Assembly: GCA_015060625.1 (NCBI GenBank) | Contig: SUYC01000004.1 | Span: 62,001-126,000, forward strand | Direction of reading: 5' to 3' | DNA length: 64,000 bases | DNA from: Xylanibacter ruminicola | GTDB lineage: Bacteria > Bacteroidota > Bacteroidia > Bacteroidales > Bacteroidaceae | Part shown: positions 51,775 through 60,781 of the stretch, in pieces | Layout of the letters: each line of letters opens with the position of its first letter | Position numbering within the stretch: position 1 is the stretch's first letter | Program-made: the position numbers and the translations under genes | Notes under the pieces: generated by a model | What the model saw: only the letters and a program-made list of their open reading frames with translations | Told to the model about the DNA's origin: nothing | The model's database searches: none

Positions 51775-52332
51775 ATGCTCAGATTTAAAGAAAGAAGCAG
51801 AATTATAGATGTGGCCATTACTGCCGTGGCAGGTATCGTGTCTGTGGGAGTGATGCTGTATGGTGTCGGACATTTCGGACTGCAAGAGGCGTGGCCCGAA
51901 CTGGTGCTCAATCTGTTTTACATCGCCTGTCTGGTGATGATCGGGATGTACTTCTTCAATCGGCTCAAGCCTCAGCAGTTCAACTACTGGTGCTCCATCT
52001 GCGTGGGCATCACGGTACTGCTGCGCGATATTCTCTTCCCACCGCCATTGGCATTCTATTGGCTGCACTTGGCGTGCCTGACACTCGCGGTGCTGTTGCT
52101 CCTCATGCTCACCTTCTTCTATGCTCGTAAGGAATGGAAGAGCTACACCAAGCGCAACCTGTGGATGATATGCATCATAGATATGCTCATTGCCGCCCTC
52201 TACAACTACGACATCTATATCGAACCTATCAACGAATATACCGACTATCTGCTCACGGAAATCTGGATTCGTCCCACAATCACCTATGGTCTGGTGGCCT
52301 GCTTTGTGTCGGAAAGAAAAAGTGCTGGGTAA
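51775..52332 (+). CDS. hypothetical membrane protein
   Basis: MLRFKERSRIIDVAITAVAGIVSVG...; several TM segments. Confidence 0.65.
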   Translation: MLRFKERSRIIDVAITAVAGIVSVGVMLYGVGHFGLQEAWPELVLNLFYIACLVMIGMYFFNRLKPQQFNYWCSICVGITVLLRDILFPPPLAFYWLHLACLTLAVLLLLMLTFFYARKEWKSYTKRNLWMICIIDMLIAALYNYDIYIEPINEYTDYLLTEIWIRPTITYGLVACFVSERKSAG

Positions 52333-52427
52333 TTCTATCGTTGAGAACAAATTTGGCAACAGACAAAACTGTTTGTTGGAGATTTATTTGTACCTTTGCC
52401 ACCAGAATAAACCCAAATATAACTCAT

Positions 52428-54359
52428 ATGACTAAACGATTTCTATTCACGACTCTCCTGATAGCTGGACTTGCAAACAGCGCCCTGGCCGACAGGATGG
52501 AGAAACTCACTTCGCCTAACGGCAAGATTGTGGCTAATATCAATATTGGCAAAGACTTAACCTACAGCGCCTCGCTCGATGGGGAGCAGATCCTGAAGGA
52601 CTGTCCGCTGAGTCTGCAAGTGGGCAAGGAGCTATTAGGCACTAACCTTAAGCTGAAGAGCACAAAGCGCACTCGGATAGACGAGCAGATTCGCCCCGTA
52701 GTGCCTCTGAAACAAGCCATCGTGCCCAACAAGGCCAACGCCTTGACACTCCATTTCAAAGGCTACAGCGTAGAGTTCAGAGCCTACGACAACGGCGTGG
52801 CTTATCGCTTTATTATTAATAAGAAAGGTGTAGTGGATATCGTGAGCGAGGGTATCAGTTACCAGCTGCCCACGGCCTTCGAGGCGCATATCTCGAAGAC
52901 ACGCAGTTTCAACACCTCGTACGAGCAGCCCTACACCCACATCAGCACAGCCCAATACCAGGCTGACGACGAGATGACTTATCTGCCCGTGCTACTGGAA
53001 AGTCCTAAGGGCACCAAGGTGCTCATCTCTGAGAGCGACGTGCGCGACTATCCTCATACCTTCCTCAAGAGCACAGGCGAGAATGGGCTGACAGCCGTTC
53101 ACCCCAAGTCGCCTGAGACCTGGGAGCCTCGCGGCGACCGCAGTTGGACCATCACCAAAGAGCGTGACTGCATTGCCCGTACCAGCGGGCAGCGCACCCT
53201 GCCCTGGCGCTTTGCCGTGATAGGCGATGATGCCACGATAGCAGCCAACCAGATGGAACTGGTGCTGGGCGGCAAGTGCGAACTGAAGGACACGTCGTGG
53301 ATCAAGCCAGGAAAGGTGAACTGGGACTGGTGGAACCACTGGACGGTATGGGATGTGGACTTCGAGTCGGGCATCAACAACGACACCTATAAGTATATCA
53401 TCGACACAGCCTCGAAGTTTGGCGTGGAATATGTGTTGCTCGACGAAGGCTGGAACAAGCGTGTGGAGGATCCCTTCACCTACAGCGACGGTATCGACGT
53501 GAAGGAGCTGGTGGAGTATGGCGCCAAGAAGCATGTGGGCATCATCCTCTGGCTGTCGTGGCTCACCGTAGAGCAGCATACCGACCTGATTAAGCACTAT
53601 GCCGACATGGGCGTGAAAGGCTTGAAGATCGACTTTATGGACCACAGCGACCAGTGGATGGTGAACTTCTACGAGCGCACGGCCCGTGAGTGTGCCAAGC
53701 ACAAGTTGCTGGTGGATTTCCACGGTTCGTTCAAGCCATCTGGTCTGGAGCAGCGCCTGCCCAACCTCATCTCATACGAAGGTGTGCGTGGTTTGGAACA
53801 AGGTGGAGGTTGCCGACCAGAGAACAGCATCTGGCTGCCCTATATGCGCAATGCCGTTGGTGCGATGGACTTTACGCCAGGCTCTATGCAGAATGCTCAG
53901 CCCGAGGACAATCACGGCACAGGTTCGCTGCCGATGGGAGGTGGCACTCGTGCCTATCAGATGGCACTCTACGTATGTTTTGAGAGTGGCTTGCAGATGC
54001 TGGCTGATAGCCCAACCCGCTATCTGCGCGAAGAGGCATGCACACGCTTCATAGCCTCGGTACCCACCACTTGGGACGAAACTCGCGTATTGGCTGCCAA
54101 AGCAGGCGATTACTACGTAGTGGCCAAGCGCAAAGGTGCGAAATGGTTTGTAGGTGCCATCACAGGCAGCAAGCCTCAGGATATCACCATCAGTCTCGAC
54201 TTCCTCAATCAGCCAGCCACACTCACCAGCTTCAGCGACGGCCGCAATGCCCATCGTATTGCCGTAGATTACAAAAAGCAGGTGCAGCAAGTAACCCCAT
54301 CCACCCAACTCACGCTCCATCTGGCACGCAACGGCGGCTGGTGCGGCTCGATAGACTAA
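52428..54359 (+). CDS. GH97 family glycoside hydrolase (SusB-like)
   Basis: Signal peptide; WNWWNHW-like core ([18 protein letters not shown]), [11 protein letters not shown]-terminal [17 protein letters not shown]; start at MTKRFLF. Confidence 0.92.
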
Positions 54360-55291
54360 CCTACTTTTTGACGGAAATACGCAATGATATGATCCAGTCC
54401 CTCGTCGAGCGACACCTTGGGCTCCCATCCTAATTCACGCTTGGCAAGTGTGATGTCGGGACGGCGCATCTTAGGATCGTCGCTTGGCAGCGGACGGAAC
54501 ACGATCTTACTCTTGCCGCCTATCTTCTGGATGACCTTCTCTGCCAGTTCAAGCATGGTGAACTCGCCTGGATTTCCAAGGTTTACCGGTCCCGTGAAAT
54601 CATCACCTGTTGCCATCGTGCGAATCATACCCTCTATCAGGTCGCTCACATACTGGAAAGAGCGTGTCTGCTGACCGTCGCCATAGATGGTGAGATCTTC
54701 GCCACGCAGCGCCTGCACCACGAAATTGCTCACCACACGTCCGTCGCTGATAGCCATACGCGGACCATAGGTATTAAAGATACGGATGACCTTGACACGC
54801 ACCTTGTGCAGTCGGTGGTAGTCGAAAAACAGTGTCTCGGCACAGCGCTTACCCTCGTCATAACATGAGCGCAAGCCTATGGGGTTAACATTTCCCCAAT
54901 AACTCTCGGGCTGTGGGTGGATATTCGGGTCGCCATACACCTCGCTGGTGCTGCTCTGCAGTATCTTTGCCTTGGTGCGACGGGCCAAGCCCAACATGTG
55001 GTAGGCACCAAACACGCTGGTCTTGGTGGTCTGTATAGGATCATTCTGATAATAAATAGGTGAGGCGGGACAAGCCAGATTATAAATCTCATCCACCTCG
55101 GCCCAGTAAGGATTGATCACATCGTGGCGCACCAACTCAAAATTCGGCTTACCAATCAAGTGCCACACATTCTCCTTCGAGCCACTATAGAAATTGTCAA
55201 GACAGATTACGTCATACCCGTCGTTCACGAGTCTTTCACAGAGGTGAGAGCCTATAAACCCAGCTCCACCCGTCACCAGAATTCTTTTCAT
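54356..55291 (-). CDS. UDP-glucuronic acid decarboxylase (extended SDR)
   Basis: [21 protein letters not shown]...[21 protein letters not shown]...TEVYGDP...NTYGPRM. Confidence 0.93.
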
Positions 55292-55403: not shown

Positions 55404-55490
55404 ATGGTATCTCAGGATGCTGGTAACCCATCCACCCAACTCAAGCTCCACTTAGTTCGCAACGGTGGCTGGTGCGGCTCGTTCGAATAA
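55404..55490 (+). pseudogene. residual 3' end of a second GH97 gene
   Basis: [28 protein letters not shown] versus GH97 C-terminus [22 protein letters not shown]. Confidence 0.8.
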
Positions 55491-55509
55491 CTGGGATACT
55501 GGGATTTGG
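55485..55509. repeat. 25-bp direct repeat, left copy
   Basis: GAATAACTGGGATACTGGGATTTGG, identical to 60757-60781. Confidence 0.9.
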
Positions 55510-55532: not shown

Positions 55533-56486
55533 TCAGAGATTATAAACTGATGCCATTTCTTTTATCCACCGGATTACTTCCTTTCGTACATGTTCTGGCG
55601 ATATCACTTCAACCTCGCTACTCATCGACAGAATATGCTGAATAAAATCGTAGGTGGGCATTACTGTCACTTCAAAGATTGAGTAGTCGCTATGCTTTTC
55701 CACCTCACGTTGCGACCAGTGTATCGGCAGTTTTCGCAGATAGTCGCGCCTGTGGTTAATGTCGGTAGCCTTTATTCGAATACGCTCTGCTTTATGCACT
55801 TCGGGTTCAACTATGATGCCATAGGCGTCAGCAAAGTAGGAGTCTACCGAAAGCCCACGTGGCATCTTGAATGTGTCCTCTGTGGCAAAAATCCGATGTA
55901 CCCTGTCAAGCGCATAGCGTCGGATACGCCCTTGCTTAGCACGTTCCTCAGGCTCTTCACCCTCAGGCGCATTAAGCATCACACCAACGACATACCATCT
56001 TTGCTGGAATACTCGTACAAAGTATGGCTCCAGCAATATCTCGCAAGGCTCATCATCAAAGAAATCCTGATAAAGGAGGTTTACTACCTGGTTTTTCTTC
56101 ATGCATTCCAATATCTTCAACAAATGCCCATTTCCATATTGAATCGTTTCGTACATCACCCTATCGCGCAGTCCTTTACTATCCTGCAATAGTCCGTTAA
56201 CGGCAAAAGCAGACAAAAGCCAATCCTTAACATTGTCTTTCTCTAACCACTCACGATTAACAATGCGATACCTGTACCCATTACGAGCATCAGACGATAT
56301 TTCGATATCAAAGGCATCCTCTATAGCACGTAGGCAATCAGCAAACGTTCGCTTAGGCAAGGTGGTCTTCAGCGTATTCAGTTCCGTACTCTCCCACTCA
56401 TAAGCAAACTCCTTATACGTCAATCCCTTGGGATTTTCGTATAGTTTTGATAATATCCAGATATGTCTGCGCAGGTAGTCCTTCAT
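55533..56486 (-). CDS. WYL-domain transcriptional regulator
   Basis: HTH-like N-domain, WYL core EPYFVRVFQQRWYVVGVM, WCX C-terminal domain. Confidence 0.88.
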   Translation of the reverse strand: MKDYLRRHIWILSKLYENPKGLTYKEFAYEWESTELNTLKTTLPKRTFADCLRAIEDAFDIEISSDARNGYRYRIVNREWLEKDNVKDWLLSAFAVNGLLQDSKGLRDRVMYETIQYGNGHLLKILECMKKNQVVNLLYQDFFDDEPCEILLEPYFVRVFQQRWYVVGVMLNAPEGEEPEERAKQGRIRRYALDRVHRIFATEDTFKMPRGLSVDSYFADAYGIIVEPEVHKAERIRIKATDINHRRDYLRKLPIHWSQREVEKHSDYSIFEVTVMPTYDFIQHILSMSSEVEVISPEHVRKEVIRWIKEMASVYNL

Positions 56487-56505
56487 ACAACGTCAAAATC
56501 CTTTT

Positions 56506-57081
56506 TTATTCATCCTCGTCGGCAACTTCCTTGCCGTTAATCAGCTTCAGCATCTTCGACACATACCCCTTGTGGGCATACAGTTGCTTAAAGCGATGCA
56601 CATTATTTGGCACGATTTCTATACGCCCATCGTCTGTTTCGTGGATAACAAGATCCAGCAGTCCGATAATATGCCCAGCCTTAGCGATGGTAATACCATA
56701 TTTAACAGCCAACGCCTTACGACCTATATAATAAGTAATGTCGCGAATACTCCTTGGGTTAATATCATCAAGACTAATGCCTGGATAGTTCTGACGAATA
56801 GCTGCAATCAGCCCATCCTTTTCTGGTAATCTTGCACTCACCCCTGGCCATGCAATAGCACTAAAATCCACATGCCCATTCTGCGCAGGCTGAGGCACTC
56901 GGCTCGAACCCATCCGAGCCAAGTCTGCCTTCATTCTGCTTACTACCTCAGGAGCCAATCGCTCCTCATCCAATTTCTTAATCAGATGTTCAGGCACTGG
57001 GTGCTCACATATCTCTTTCAGTGTCCTGCCCTCACCATTTATCCCTCCATTGCCAGAGGGAATATAATCATCAATACTCAT
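56506..57081 (-). CDS. uncharacterised protein, possible degenerate HNH/EndoVII-type motif
   Basis: 191 aa; LDLVIHETDDGRIEIVPNNVHRFKQLYAHKGYV resembles WHH-type HNH nuclease signatures. Confidence 0.4.
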   Translation of the reverse strand: MSIDDYIPSGNGGINGEGRTLKEICEHPVPEHLIKKLDEERLAPEVVSRMKADLARMGSSRVPQPAQNGHVDFSAIAWPGVSARLPEKDGLIAAIRQNYPGISLDDINPRSIRDITYYIGRKALAVKYGITIAKAGHIIGLLDLVIHETDDGRIEIVPNNVHRFKQLYAHKGYVSKMLKLINGKEVADEDE

Positions 57082-57105
57082 GTTCTTATCTTCACAATAT
57101 AATAA

Positions 57106-57513
57106 TCATGCTAGATACTCAGAAATATCAATATCATCATCTAGACCTAACCTTTGCTTCCACTCCATGTAATATTTTGTTTCATTTGGATGAATTACTC
57201 CGTCTGCTTCTATGACACCATTTATAAAATACGACAACGTTTTTAATAGAGGTTTTTTCTCTTCATATTCTACGGCTTCAAGCATTTTTTTAGTCTCATC
57301 AACAAGATAATCTATATCGATAGAGGTGCATAAAGATCTCTTAATCTGTAAAAGATCATCTAGTGGTATTTCTTGTTTCGACATTTCATTTATATATTTG
57401 TCAATAAACTCAGATTCGCGAACATCATATTCTCCATCGCAATTAGCGATGAAGCTTCCAAGCTCCATAACTAATTTAATAAGTTTTCTTTTTCTGGCCT
57501 CCATACTACTCAA
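57106..57513 (-). CDS. TerB-like domain protein
   Basis: SFIANCDGEYDVRESEFIDKYI and FINGVIEADGVIHPNETKYY, TerB-type DGxxxxxE repeats. Confidence 0.6.
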   Translation of the reverse strand: MSSMEARKRKLIKLVMELGSFIANCDGEYDVRESEFIDKYINEMSKQEIPLDDLLQIKRSLCTSIDIDYLVDETKKMLEAVEYEEKKPLLKTLSYFINGVIEADGVIHPNETKYYMEWKQRLGLDDDIDISEYLA

Positions 57514-58252
57514 ATATTAATTTGGTTTCAATCAAGATATCTTGCTTTTTAGATACTATTTGGTTATAGTTAGCACTCAATTTAAAAATGCTTGAAACTT
57601 TTAAAGAAAAGGCAATATCTAATTGACTATTTAGTTCCTTTGTTAAATTGAATCTTACATGTTGACTTGTTAACTGGTTCCCAAATTTCGGGTTCCTTGT
57701 CTTCAATAAATAATTAATATCGTCATCATCATATAATCCATTTTGTTTTGCTTCCAAGACAGCCTGATTATAAGAAGCCATGGAAAATTCGCCTCTGAAA
57801 GTTTCGTGTCTATAATACTTTCCTGTCATTGAGTCGTTCTCTTTAATTCGTACTGAACTTGCGGCATTTATTAGTTTATAATCCAGTTCTCCATTTGCAT
57901 TAATAATCCGTTCTTTGCTCTCTGTTATTGCAAAGGTAGTCTCATACTCTTTTGCTCCAAGATAATGAGCAATAATACCTAAACTTTTAAATTTGGCTTT
58001 AGTAAGGACATCTTCTGTTGTTTCTAGAGGGATATATTTATTTGGTTTAAATGGATGTTTTATCAAAATAGTATCTAATACAGGTACTTTTTTCCCATCA
58101 AATATATCGACGCCCATCTCATAAATATCGTCAAGTGAAACTATTTGCACATTAGGGTTCAACTTGTTTGCAGTTTTCTCCCACATGTAATTTGTAGCAC
58201 GTTCTTCACTAGTAACATAAATGATGTCTCTTGTCAATTTGCAATTTTCCAT
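57506..58252 (-). CDS. hypothetical protein
   Basis: Intact 248-aa ORF overlapping its neighbours in operon arrangement; no recognised domain. Confidence 0.6.
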   Translation of the reverse strand: MENCKLTRDIIYVTSEERATNYMWEKTANKLNPNVQIVSLDDIYEMGVDIFDGKKVPVLDTILIKHPFKPNKYIPLETTEDVLTKAKFKSLGIIAHYLGAKEYETTFAITESKERIINANGELDYKLINAASSVRIKENDSMTGKYYRHETFRGEFSMASYNQAVLEAKQNGLYDDDDINYLLKTRNPKFGNQLTSQHVRFNLTKELNSQLDIAFSLKVSSIFKLSANYNQIVSKKQDILIETKLIFE

Positions 58253-58710
58253 ATAATCAATATTAATAGGGTTATACTTGATAAAATCCCACCATATATA
58301 AACTTATCCGAAAGATAAGGAAGTATTTTAAGCTCATTTTCAAAGCAATCACGCTTAATATTTGCTGCATAATTATTTAGAATCTGGCACGCTTCGTTAA
58401 TATCTGTCGATTTAGTATAAAAAAGGAATGGCATGTTCCTTCCAAGTTCGTCTTTCTCTTGAAAACAGGCTTTAATTAAAATTCCAGAAGAGTCTTTGGC
58501 AAATTTAAAGTTTTTAGATTTAATTATTCCATAATCTTTTAATTGTTCAATTAACCATACCCATTTGCCTTTTTCACCTGATTTCTTATTGATTAATCTT
58601 AATGCATCAGATGCAATTCCTGTGGACATCTCAGAATAAAATTCTCCATCGACAATAATAGAATTTTTCTGATTGGCAGATTCGTTTTGTGTATAAAGAA
58701 TATTTTCCAT
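58234..58710 (-). CDS. hypothetical protein with C-terminal TM helix
   Basis: 158 aa; FIYGGILSSITLLILIIWKIAN tail anchor. Confidence 0.6.
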   Translation of the reverse strand: MENILYTQNESANQKNSIIVDGEFYSEMSTGIASDALRLINKKSGEKGKWVWLIEQLKDYGIIKSKNFKFAKDSSGILIKACFQEKDELGRNMPFLFYTKSTDINEACQILNNYAANIKRDCFENELKILPYLSDKFIYGGILSSITLLILIIWKIAN

Positions 58711-58715
58711 ATTTT

Positions 58716-59423
58716 CTAACTAAATATTTTTCCCAACTTTTCCATTAGAACTTTTTTGTTTCTCATATCCTGCATAAAAAACCTACTAGGGATAAACAGG
58801 CGACTATAATCCTTTCCCATTACAGAATTCTTTATTGACGAATATGCTTTATTCCTTTCATCATCATTAGAGAACATATCTGCAAAAGTTGCGAAAACGT
58901 TTACAGTGCATTTACTTTCTAGCGAATGCCTATTAACAAACTCTAAACGAGATTGTGTTTGCTTCCTATAATTATCTTTGTTTAGGTAGTCATGTGCGTT
59001 GAAAAGAAAAAACACAATTTCATTACTATTTATCATGTCCTCATAATAGTCAAGAATTAGTTCTTCGCCTCCGCCAATATCTTTACCTCCTTCTATAGAA
59101 ACAACTCGGTTTCCAAGTACAATGTTAAATTTCTCATAATCTTCTTCGCCTATTGTTGCTGCGTAGTCCTTATAATCTTTGTTTCGAATATTTGCTAGGA
59201 ACTGCGTCTTTCCAGCACCTTTCATTCCAAGAACCGCTATGGTCTTACCTTTTTCTGGTTCTGGCTCACCACAAAACCAGCCTATAAGTGCACCTACCAC
59301 AAGAGCAGCACCGCCACCAGCAAGTGCTGCATATGCAATAATTGGAATAAACCACCATACAGCTTCTTGCTGTTGATAAACTGGAATAGTAATAGATTGT
59401 AATAATAAAATTGAATGATACAT
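58716..59423 (-). CDS. membrane-anchored P-loop GTPase-like protein
   Basis: N-terminal TM (IPIIAYAALAGGGAALVVGALIGWF); G1 AVLGMKGAGKTQFL; DxxG-like KDIGGG; G4 NKxD not evident. Confidence 0.75.
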   Translation of the reverse strand: MYHSILLLQSITIPVYQQQEAVWWFIPIIAYAALAGGGAALVVGALIGWFCGEPEPEKGKTIAVLGMKGAGKTQFLANIRNKDYKDYAATIGEEDYEKFNIVLGNRVVSIEGGKDIGGGEELILDYYEDMINSNEIVFFLFNAHDYLNKDNYRKQTQSRLEFVNRHSLESKCTVNVFATFADMFSNDDERNKAYSSIKNSVMGKDYSRLFIPSRFFMQDMRNKKVLMEKLGKIFS

Positions 59424-59432
59424 AATTATTAG

Positions 59433-59654
59433 TTATTTAATTTTTATTGCTTCCAAATACGCAGAGTTCAAGGCTCCTGCTTTCTTTAAATCGATACCAT
59501 ATACTCGCATAAAGGCATCGGCTACAGCCTGACCTCCATTGGCGGTAATAGGGTTGACAGCGGATACCGTCGCCACCTCAACACTCATGCCTGGTTCTAT
59601 CAGGATGCCATTGGTGAGTTTTCGAGCTCTTGTAGTTACTTTGAATAGTGCCAT
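59433..59654 (-). CDS. small conserved Bacteroidales protein (tentatively DUF6140-like)
   Basis: MALFKVTTRARKLTNGILIEPGMSVEVATVSAVNPITANGGQAVADAFMRVYGIDLKKAGALNSAYLEAIKIK; start M49 of the listed ORF. Confidence 0.6.
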   Translation of the reverse strand: MALFKVTTRARKLTNGILIEPGMSVEVATVSAVNPITANGGQAVADAFMRVYGIDLKKAGALNSAYLEAIKIK

Positions 59655-59696: not shown

Positions 59697-59848
59697 GACC
59701 TCGTGTCGATATCCTACAACGGAGGTCCTGAGAAAACCTTGAAGGTGGAATATGACAGAAGTCCGCGCTATGGTAACGCGGAAACAACTGTACGACATTC
59801 CCCACCTTCACTTTCATGTCCCGCTTAAGCAGACAGGGAGTTCTCAGG
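59697..59848 (-). ncRNA. putative structured 5' leader RNA
   Basis: Nested complementary arms: CCTGAGAA/TTCTCAGG, GAAGGTGG/CCACCTTC, TCCGCG/CGCGGA, GACCTC/GAGGTC, between a promoter motif and the ATG at 59654. Confidence 0.55.
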
Positions 59849-59892
59849 TTCCCGTTTGGTGAGAATGAAGCACTTTGCTTCGCTTTATGTGG

Positions 59893-60231: not shown

Positions 60232-60468
60232 TTATTTTATAATTAGGTATATCAACCAACTAAGCACCTTGCAAGTTATCAGAAAGGCTACAGCGCCAAT
60301 AACCAAACATAGCAATGCTGGCCAAAGTGCTATACACTCCCAACGCTCGGTCATTACTTTAGTGGCCGACATAAGGGTGATACATGGCACGGGTGCAGCG
60401 GCAATACATAAAAACACAGCAATCCACTCGGCAATACTCTTTCTTTTATTCTTCTTAATCTCTTCCAT
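60232..60468 (-). CDS. small membrane protein
   Basis: 78 aa, two hydrophobic segments. Confidence 0.55.
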   Translation of the reverse strand: MEEIKKNKRKSIAEWIAVFLCIAAAPVPCITLMSATKVMTERWECIALWPALLCLVIGAVAFLITCKVLSWLIYLIIK

Positions 60469-60477
60469 ATTTATTAC

Positions 60478-60624
60478 TTATATTAAATTTTGCTTTTTAC
60501 TTCTCCTGATTTCACAATACTGATGCCTGAGCAACGCTGCATAGTAAATTCCAGCTATACTCCATCCAATGGGCCCCAAAAAGATTGTGAGCCACCTAAA
60601 TACCTTATTTGTATCCATACTCAT
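60478..60624 (-). CDS. small membrane protein
   Basis: MSMDTNKVFRWLTIFLGPIGWSIAGIYYAALLRHQYCEIRRSKKQNLI. Confidence 0.5.
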   Translation of the reverse strand: MSMDTNKVFRWLTIFLGPIGWSIAGIYYAALLRHQYCEIRRSKKQNLI

Positions 60625-60756: not shown

Positions 60757-60781
60757 GAATAACTGGGATACTGGGATTTGG
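60757..60781. repeat. 25-bp direct repeat, right copy
   Basis: GAATAACTGGGATACTGGGATTTGG, identical to 55485-55509. Confidence 0.9.

What the first reader, a model, noticed from the sequence alone, without database searches (positions are those of the whole stretch)
55533..59654. Candidate undescribed conflict/defence operon: GTPase-TM-unknown-TerB-like-HNH-like-WYL
Seven co-directional, overlapping or closely spaced genes encode a DUF6140-like small protein, a TM-anchored P-loop GTPase with degenerate G4, a tail-anchored protein, an unknown protein, a TerB-like domain, a possible HNH-motif protein and a WYL regulator. WYL regulators and TerB domains recur in prokaryotic immune loci, and a membrane GTPase could be a sensor or switch. 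I do not recognise this combination as a named system.
Basis: inference. Interest (0 to 1): 0.8.

Follow-up and report, generated by a model that had tools for sequence, protein, structure and literature searches.

The report
Swappable defence cassette behind structured RNA
In a Prevotella-like bacterium, a fixed genetic frame (a newly recognised structured RNA, a small protein, a possible nuclease and a regulator) holds a membrane-GTPase gene set that, in related bacteria, is exchanged for other gene sets, including known anti-phage systems, so the GTPase set is probably a new defence module.

Summary
Seven co-directional, tightly packed genes lie at 59654-55533 (-), but they are not one fixed system. 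About 50 related loci show a constant frame around exchangeable cargo. The 5' arm is small membrane ORFs, a structured leader RNA and DUF6140; the 3' arm is P2 plus the WYL regulator. Two relatives keep both arms (82-90% identical DNA) around unrelated cargo: LeoBC+LeoA in one (PADLOC E 2e-82, 6e-80), an AHH nuclease plus a P4-domain protein in the other. A second locus pair at one chromosomal site shows the same exchange between DUF6140 and LHH-nuclease+WYL. The window's cargo is a membrane-anchored Arf/SR-beta-like GTPase, a tail-anchored protein, an unnamed protein (P4) and a TerB-like protein. The first three recur together in nine loci and match no named system. The leader RNA is absent from Rfam 15, shows strong covariation (20 of 36 pairs compensated), occurs in 74 of 399 family genomes, and has a promoter box upstream in 28 of 28 distant members. 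Anti-phage function is inferred from this company, not shown; P2 as a nuclease is unproven.

The parts
60478..60624 (-). small membrane ORF sTM1 (48 aa), 5' arm
   Evidence: conserved at the same place in L030 (E 4e-35)
60232..60468 (-). small membrane ORF sTM2 (78 aa), 5' arm
   Evidence: conserved in L030, L036, L118, L122
59970..60215 (-). small membrane ORF sTM3 (81 aa), 5' arm
   Evidence: conserved in L030, L036, L118, L122; weak in L031
59893..59900 (-). Bacteroidetes -7 promoter box TACCTTTG
   Evidence: TAnnTTTG lies upstream of the RNA core in 28 of 28 distant members against 5% of control windows
59717..59883 (-). structured leader RNA (core, 167 nt), new family
   Evidence: fold z -4.3; 20 of 36 pairs with compensatory changes, covariation score 0.48 against 0.22 shuffled; no Rfam family; 74 of 399 family genomes
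59433..59654 (-). DUF6140 small protein (PF19637), head of the cassette
   Evidence: Pfam E 8.7e-33; homology between loci stops at its stop codon
58716..59423 (-). TM-anchored Arf/SR-beta-like GTPase (cargo)
   Evidence: Pfam Arf E 0.004, below cut-off; profile against PDB: Arl3 4e-7, SR-beta 3e-6
58234..58710 (-). tail-anchored partner protein (cargo)
   Evidence: C-terminal TM in the sequence; between GTPase and P4 in nine loci
57506..58252 (-). P4, unnamed domain (cargo)
   Evidence: no Pfam family above cut-off; same domain as the C-terminal half of the P4-long proteins of other DUF6140 cassettes (hhalign 98.2%)
57106..57504 (-). TerB-like protein (cargo)
   Evidence: Pfam E 7e-4, below cut-off; TerB is fused to the LeoBC dynamin in the swapped cassette L030 (E 8e-6)
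56506..57081 (-). P2, possible HNH/EndoVII-like nuclease, 3' arm
   Evidence: invariant IHE..G..VP.N.H....H.G; AF2 model has strand-strand-helix at 144-169; no significant profile or fold match
55533..56486 (-). WYL-WCX transcriptional regulator, 3' arm
   Evidence: Pfam WYL 2e-8, WCX 1e-9; PADLOC WYL 2e-25
55485..55509 (+). 25-bp direct repeat, WYL-side end of the operon
   Evidence: 19-nt core found only 3 times in the genome; also directly after WYL in L030
60757..60781 (+). 25-bp direct repeat, upstream end of the operon
   Evidence: perfect copy

Best explanation
This is a cassette-exchange defence locus. A constant frame supplies expression control: promoter, structured leader RNA and DUF6140 in front, P2 and a WYL regulator behind. 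The frame's near-identical arms let cargo be replaced, probably by homologous recombination (arms and replacement shown; route inferred). The present cargo is a membrane-bound GTPase switch. An Arf/SR-beta-like GTPase is held in the inner membrane by an N-terminal helix and works with a tail-anchored protein, P4 and a TerB-like protein (co-occurrence shown, complex inferred). By analogy with the TerB-dynamin LeoBC/LeoA set that fills the same slot in a relative, it probably assembles at the membrane when a phage is detected and blocks infection there (inferred). WYL keeps the operon off until an infection or DNA-damage signal, and the leader RNA sets or senses expression (inferred).
For: Arms 82-90% identical in DNA and cargo unrelated between window, L030 and L036, with breakpoints at the DUF6140 stop and about P2 codons 4-7. 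L030 cargo is LeoBC plus LeoA over nearly full length. Same-site exchange L107/L108: DUF6140 side 93.8%, LHH+WYL side 90.7%, chromosomal flanks 79-80%, cargo 4.2 kb against 3.1 kb without homology. DUF6140 3'-end scars in L108, L129, L131, L035 and before the GTPase in L004. Other DUF6140 or RNA cargo: GmrSD, HEC-06, PDC-S26, McrBC, dynamins. GTPase-TA-P4 triad in nine loci including another bacterial family. WYL-DUF6140 linkage 13 of 25 against 0.5 expected, P about 1e-14. Cargo 32-37% GC against 45% for P2+WYL and 52% for nearby chromosome. RNA covariation and promoter box.
Against: No experiment. Window cargo has only weak partial PADLOC matches, so the defence role rests on company. GTPase G4 is degenerate here. 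In L024/L201 the triad sits in a larger cluster with a PP2C-type phosphatase and peptidase-like genes that need not be defence. P2 nuclease not supported by profile or fold search. Several distant RNA members precede genes with no obvious defence role.
Confidence: 0.66

Rival explanations
1. Envelope-stress module: GTPase, TA, P4 and TerB respond to membrane or metal stress like Ter-type systems, and their nearness to defence cassettes reflects a shared regulatory leader and insertion hotspot only.
For: TerB-like protein; triad within a PP2C/peptidase-like cluster in L024 and L201; TM2 and zinc-ribbon proteins with P4-long in L032/L034; many distant RNA members precede lipoprotein-like genes.
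Against: Slot shared with LeoABC in L030; sporadic distribution (GTPase in 3 of 200 genus genomes); low-GC exchanged cargo.
Confidence: 0.2
2. Polymorphic-toxin locus: P2, AHH, LHH and WHH nucleases are inter-bacterial toxins and the rest are immunity or delivery parts.
For: AHH in L036, LHH in L107/L108, WHH in L031; nuclease-like gene and regulator as a constant 3' unit.
Against: No secretion, VgrG/Hcp or CDI parts recognised in the families searched; an RNase_T exonuclease accompanies WYL in L110; cargo includes intracellular anti-phage systems.
Confidence: 0.1
3. The leader RNA is a general regulatory leader (for example a riboswitch or attenuator) with no special tie to defence, and DUF6140 a translated leader; the apparent frame is a common promoter cassette.
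For: RNA in 17 genera with diverse downstream genes; some DUF6140 loci have other leaders; L119, L120 and L028 have the RNA without DUF6140.
Against: RNA, DUF6140, P2 and WYL are retained together in L030 and L036 around unrelated cargo.
Confidence: 0.25

Closest known systems
LeoABC / bacterial dynamin defence sets (PADLOC LeoA, LeoBC)
   Same: Fills the same slot between the same arms in L030; membrane-acting GTPases; a TerB or TerB-like domain is part of both cargos
   Different: Window GTPase is a small Arf/SR-beta-like protein with no dynamin domain; partners TA and P4 are not in LeoABC
DO-GTPase/GAP1 GTPase-centric conflict systems (eLife 2020, PMC7159879)
   Same: GTPase switch with membrane-linked components and variable effectors
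   Different: No DO-GTPase or GAP1 match in the window; different GTPase family and partners
BrxR/CapW-type WYL regulators of defence islands (PMC9122601, PMC9122588)
   Same: WYL-WCX regulator tied to variable defence genes
   Different: No sequence match to any solved structure at E up to 0.1; paired with a nuclease-like gene and a structured leader RNA
Defence hotspots with exchangeable cargo (general knowledge)
   Same: Constant flanks, variable defence content
   Different: Here the constant part is itself an expression unit (promoter, RNA, DUF6140, nuclease-like gene, WYL) and is found at different chromosomal sites

Membership tests
LeoABC / dynamin defence | Dynamin-type GTPase (Dynamin_N, LeoA/LeoBC match) | tested here: not met
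   P0006 has no Dynamin_N or Leo match; L030 cargo does
LeoABC / dynamin defence | TerB-linked GTPase set in the same genomic frame | tested here: met
   TerB-like P0003 (weak), TerB fused to LeoBC in L030, matching arms
DO-GTPase/GAP1 system | DO-GTPase (PF19993/PF19975) and GAP1 proteins | tested here: not met
   no match at E up to 1 among window proteins
Arf/SR-beta-like small GTPases | P-loop, DxGG switch II, N/TKxD G4 | tested here: inconclusive
   profile matches Arl3 4e-7 and SR-beta 3e-6 over the first part of the G domain; G4 degenerate in the window, TxxDK or SxxDK in relatives
BrxR/CapW-type WYL regulator | winged HTH - WYL - WCX architecture | tested here: met
   WYL 2e-8, WCX 1e-9; HTH_43 0.012 (below cut-off) at 40-75
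BrxR/CapW-type WYL regulator | binds and represses its own operon promoter | not testable with these tools
   needs EMSA or a reporter
HNH/EndoVII nuclease (P2) | Pfam match to an HNH/EndoVII family | tested here: not met
   none for P0002; WHH 0.056 for the L031 homologue, below cut-off
HNH/EndoVII nuclease (P2) | beta-beta-alpha core with catalytic His | tested here: inconclusive
   invariant H147, H162, H170; local strand-strand-helix in a medium-confidence model; Foldseek found nothing significant
TerB domain | Pfam TerB over the curated cut-off | tested here: inconclusive
   20.3 bits against 24.4
Known RNA families (Rfam 15) | match of the leader RNA to a family | tested here: not met
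   no match for the window copy or in 20 loci at their distant RNA members
Named anti-phage system (PADLOC) | cargo proteins match a system model | tested here: not met
   only weak partial matches for P0006 (SspE 1e-4, mad8 0.006), none for P0003-P0005

The most novel reading that the evidence does not exclude
Bacteroidales carry a dedicated plug-in immune platform: a widespread, undescribed structured leader RNA, with DUF6140 and a nuclease/WYL unit, forms a common infection-responsive expression frame into which different defence cassettes are swapped, and the GTPase-TA-P4(-TerB) triad is a new class of membrane GTPase immunity.
Probability: 0.35. Interest if true: 0.92.

Novelty: new variant of a known kind. 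Interest (0 to 1): 0.78.

Why it matters
If true, it gives a handle to find defence genes in Bacteroidales by their frame rather than their sequence: search downstream of DUF6140 or the leader RNA. It adds a small-GTPase membrane module to bacterial immunity, resembling the SRP-receptor/Arf type of switch, and it puts a structured RNA into the control of exchangeable immune genes. The RNA family alone, strongly covarying and present in about a fifth of the family genomes searched, is new to Rfam and directly testable.

Tried and rejected
P4 fold from a single sequence failed (pLDDT 35). The P2 model (pLDDT 66) gave no significant Foldseek match in PDB or BFVD. Profile comparison of P2 with WHH and LHH nucleases was not significant. 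No relatives of the GTPase, P4, P2, DUF6140 or P4-long proteins in IMG/VR, and no GTPase relative in PLSDB plasmids, so phage or plasmid carriage of the cassette is not supported. The only 'phage' record with DUF6140 (MT836227) looks like a bacterial contig with an integrase and conjugation genes. The Pfam hits GT88 for P4 (E 0.006) and UxuA for TerB were below cut-off and dropped. The structure jobs were given only sequences on the tool's stated list, which left the P4 input shallow. Literature searches found no paper naming DUF6140 or this arrangement. No tRNA attachment site in the window. An Rfam hit in the window region (ncr1175, E 0.88) is chance.
Full report
WHAT IS THERE. All seven ORFs of the finding are real and packed as one transcription unit on the minus strand (gaps 9, 5, -19, 1, 24, 19 nt). 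Pfam confirms DUF6140 (8.7e-33) and WYL+WCX (2e-8, 1e-9), supports TerB weakly (7e-4, below cut-off) and finds only sub-threshold Arf/Ras for the GTPase. A profile of seven GTPases matches Arl3 (4e-7) and SRP-receptor beta (3e-6) best among solved structures. SRP-receptor beta, like P0006, is a small GTPase with an N-terminal membrane helix (general knowledge). P0004 (here P4) and P0005 (here TA, one C-terminal membrane helix) have no Pfam family above cut-off.

MISSED PARTS. Upstream lie three small membrane ORFs (60624-59970) and a 167-nt structured RNA (59883-59717). The RNA region folds with z -4.3. A 25-bp perfect direct repeat bounds the whole block (55485-55509 and 60757-60781). Its 19-nt core occurs three times in the whole genome: these two, and one inverted copy 4.4 kb further on, next to a BT4734-like primase/helicase gene. 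The repeat's 15-nt core also follows WYL in L030.

CONSTANT FRAME, EXCHANGED CARGO. Two relatives, G007 (L030) and G055 (L036), keep the same 5' arm (small ORFs, RNA, DUF6140; 82-86% DNA identity) and the same 3' arm (P2, WYL; 88-90%), while everything between differs. In L030 the WYL frame is broken into two ORFs. The breakpoints are the DUF6140 stop codon and about P2 codons 4-7. L030's cargo is a coiled-coil TM protein, a TerB-fused LeoBC dynamin (PADLOC 2e-82) and LeoA (6e-80). L036's cargo is an AHH nuclease (3e-11) and a 708-aa protein with a P4 domain. L004 carries the window's cargo (85% identical GTPase) with P2 but without DUF6140 or WYL; the 3' end of DUF6140 (TATTTGGAAGCAA) remains just before the GTPase start, as a scar. 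A second pair, L107 and L108, sits at one chromosomal site: flanks 79-80%, DUF6140 side 93.8%, LHH-nuclease+WYL side 90.7%, and between them 4.2 kb against 3.1 kb with no similarity. The right breakpoint again falls inside the first codons of the nuclease gene. L108 also keeps a 94-nt second copy of the DUF6140 3' end; L131, L129 and L035 have further partial ones, and L113 a full second DUF6140. GC content fits a mosaic: window cargo 32%, L030 and L036 cargos 37% and 34%, P2+WYL 45%, nearby chromosome 52%. Arms more alike than flanks suggest homologous recombination in the arms as the route of exchange; this is inference.

COMPANY. DUF6140 is found in 30 of 200 genus genomes and in none of 14 well-known control genomes. 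Among 67 cargo proteins from DUF6140 or RNA loci, PADLOC's commonest matches are LeoBC (8), LeoA (6), HEC-06 (4) and IetA (4); Pfam's are Dynamin_N (8), AAA (5) and GmrSD (4), with PDDEXK_4 and McrBC also present. These are family matches, not proof of function, and the IetA hits rest on the shared AAA domain. Per locus: L117 LeoBC 1e-92 and LeoA 1e-86, L113 HEC-06 4e-52, L114 GmrSD 5e-23, L131 PDC-S26 7e-22, L119 IetA 8e-30. WYL genes lie within 8 kb of 13 of 25 DUF6140 genes in 20 genomes chosen only for DUF6140; 0.48 are expected from 75 WYL genes in 62 Mb (Poisson about 1e-14; two of these loci, L107 and L108, are one site in two genomes). In the loci read, a nuclease-like gene often stands beside WYL: P2 (window, L030, L036), LHH (L107, L108), or an RNase_T exonuclease (L110 tested; similar ORFs in L114, L129-L131).

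THE CARGO HERE. GTPase, TA and P4 occur side by side in this order in nine loci: the window, L004, L024, L025, L026, L027, L028, L029 and, from another family of the order, L201; L025's GTPase and TA are distant (5e-14, 7e-20). Two of the nine sit behind the leader RNA (window, L028) and two behind DUF6140 (window, L026). TerB follows only in the window and L004. P4 is the same domain as the C-terminal half of long proteins with zinc-ribbon or other N-termini (hhalign 98.2%), which lie first or second behind DUF6140 in many other cassettes (L032, L034, L035, L036, L100, L101, L108, L117). P4 was the most frequent DUF6140-linked domain that I met, and it has no name. The set was partly gathered by searching for P4, so its frequency is biased upwards.

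THE RNA. Nine close copies gave a covariance model. A family-wide search found it in 74 of 399 genomes and 17 of 30 genera, full length. An independent MAFFT alignment of 33 members has 20 of 36 pairs with compensatory change, 95.6% of cells paired, covariation 0.481 against 0.223 for shuffles and at most 0.103 when slid. All 28 distant members tested have the Bacteroidetes -7 box TAnnTTTG 46-83 nt upstream of the core, against 5% of control windows; the close copies have similar boxes, by eye. No Rfam 15 family matches. One-base indels in conserved stretches argue against coding. Downstream genes are diverse: GTPase and dynamin sets in the close copies, and TerB-like, HTH, radical-SAM and lipoprotein-like genes in the distant ones (by eye). 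It is therefore most likely a transcribed leader; what it senses is unknown.

MECHANISM, SHOWN AND INFERRED. Shown: frame, replacement of cargo, RNA structure, promoter-box position, linkage of WYL with DUF6140, recurrence of the triad. Inferred: that the cassette protects against phage; that the GTPase switches at the inner membrane with TA, P4 and TerB, comparable in place to LeoABC; that WYL, like BrxR and CapW in the literature (PMC9122601, PMC9122588), controls the operon until infection; that P2 acts as a nuclease. For P2 the case is mixed: invariant H147-E148, H162 and H170, a strand-strand-helix at the right place in a medium-confidence model, and an LHH nuclease at the equivalent place in sister loci, but no significant Pfam, profile, PDB or fold match.

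NOVELTY. Variable defence content between constant flanks is a known kind. New here are the frame (RNA, DUF6140, nuclease-like gene, WYL), the RNA family, and the GTPase-TA-P4 triad. No paper in the searched library mentions DUF6140; subscription papers and preprints are mostly not held there. The DO-GTPase/GAP1 systems (PMC7159879) are the nearest described GTPase conflict systems, and membership was tested and not met.

Noticed in passing
61270-65192 (end beyond the window; L037:1-2226): Two unknown ORFs and a BT4734-like primase/helicase gene follow the operon, closed by an inverted copy of the 19-nt repeat; the block from 55485 to about 65219 may be one mobile element.
   Followed up: partly
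54300-54360 and 55431-55491: The 3' end of the glycosidase gene (52134-54359) is duplicated (84%) on the far side of the epimerase/decarboxylase gene, ending where the 25-bp repeat begins.
   Followed up: no
L129:2577-3130, L131:2760-3823: A stretch of about 52 nt at the 3' end of the RNase_T exonuclease gene is repeated after the next gene, as if small cargo had been inserted at that gene's end too.
   Followed up: no
L119:3623-4255, L120:5879-6511, L121:7191-7817, L129:4752-5399: A roughly 210-aa protein with motif GESHYC recurs near the leader RNA or WYL; no Pfam family for the L119 copy.
   Followed up: no
L098, L099, L102, L035 (about 300 nt upstream of DUF6140): A second conserved leader, not matched by the RNA model, precedes DUF6140 in another group of loci.
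   Followed up: partly
L024:975-9732, L201:578-7846: The triad lies in a shared larger cluster with a PP2C-type phosphatase and peptidase-like genes in two bacterial families.
   Followed up: no
L139, L157 (downstream of the RNA): The leader RNA precedes genes resembling the His-Xaa-Ser system (HxsD, HxsB radical SAM), by eye only.
   Followed up: no
L167, L170, L173, L175, L178, L179: Members of the leader RNA family occur in IMG/VR contigs, some next to integrase or mobilisation genes.
   Followed up: partly
L180 (MT836227.1): A record named 'Bacteriophage sp.' holds the DUF6140 3' end, TM2/zinc-ribbon and P4-long genes beside an integrase and conjugation gene; probably bacterial DNA.
   Followed up: partly
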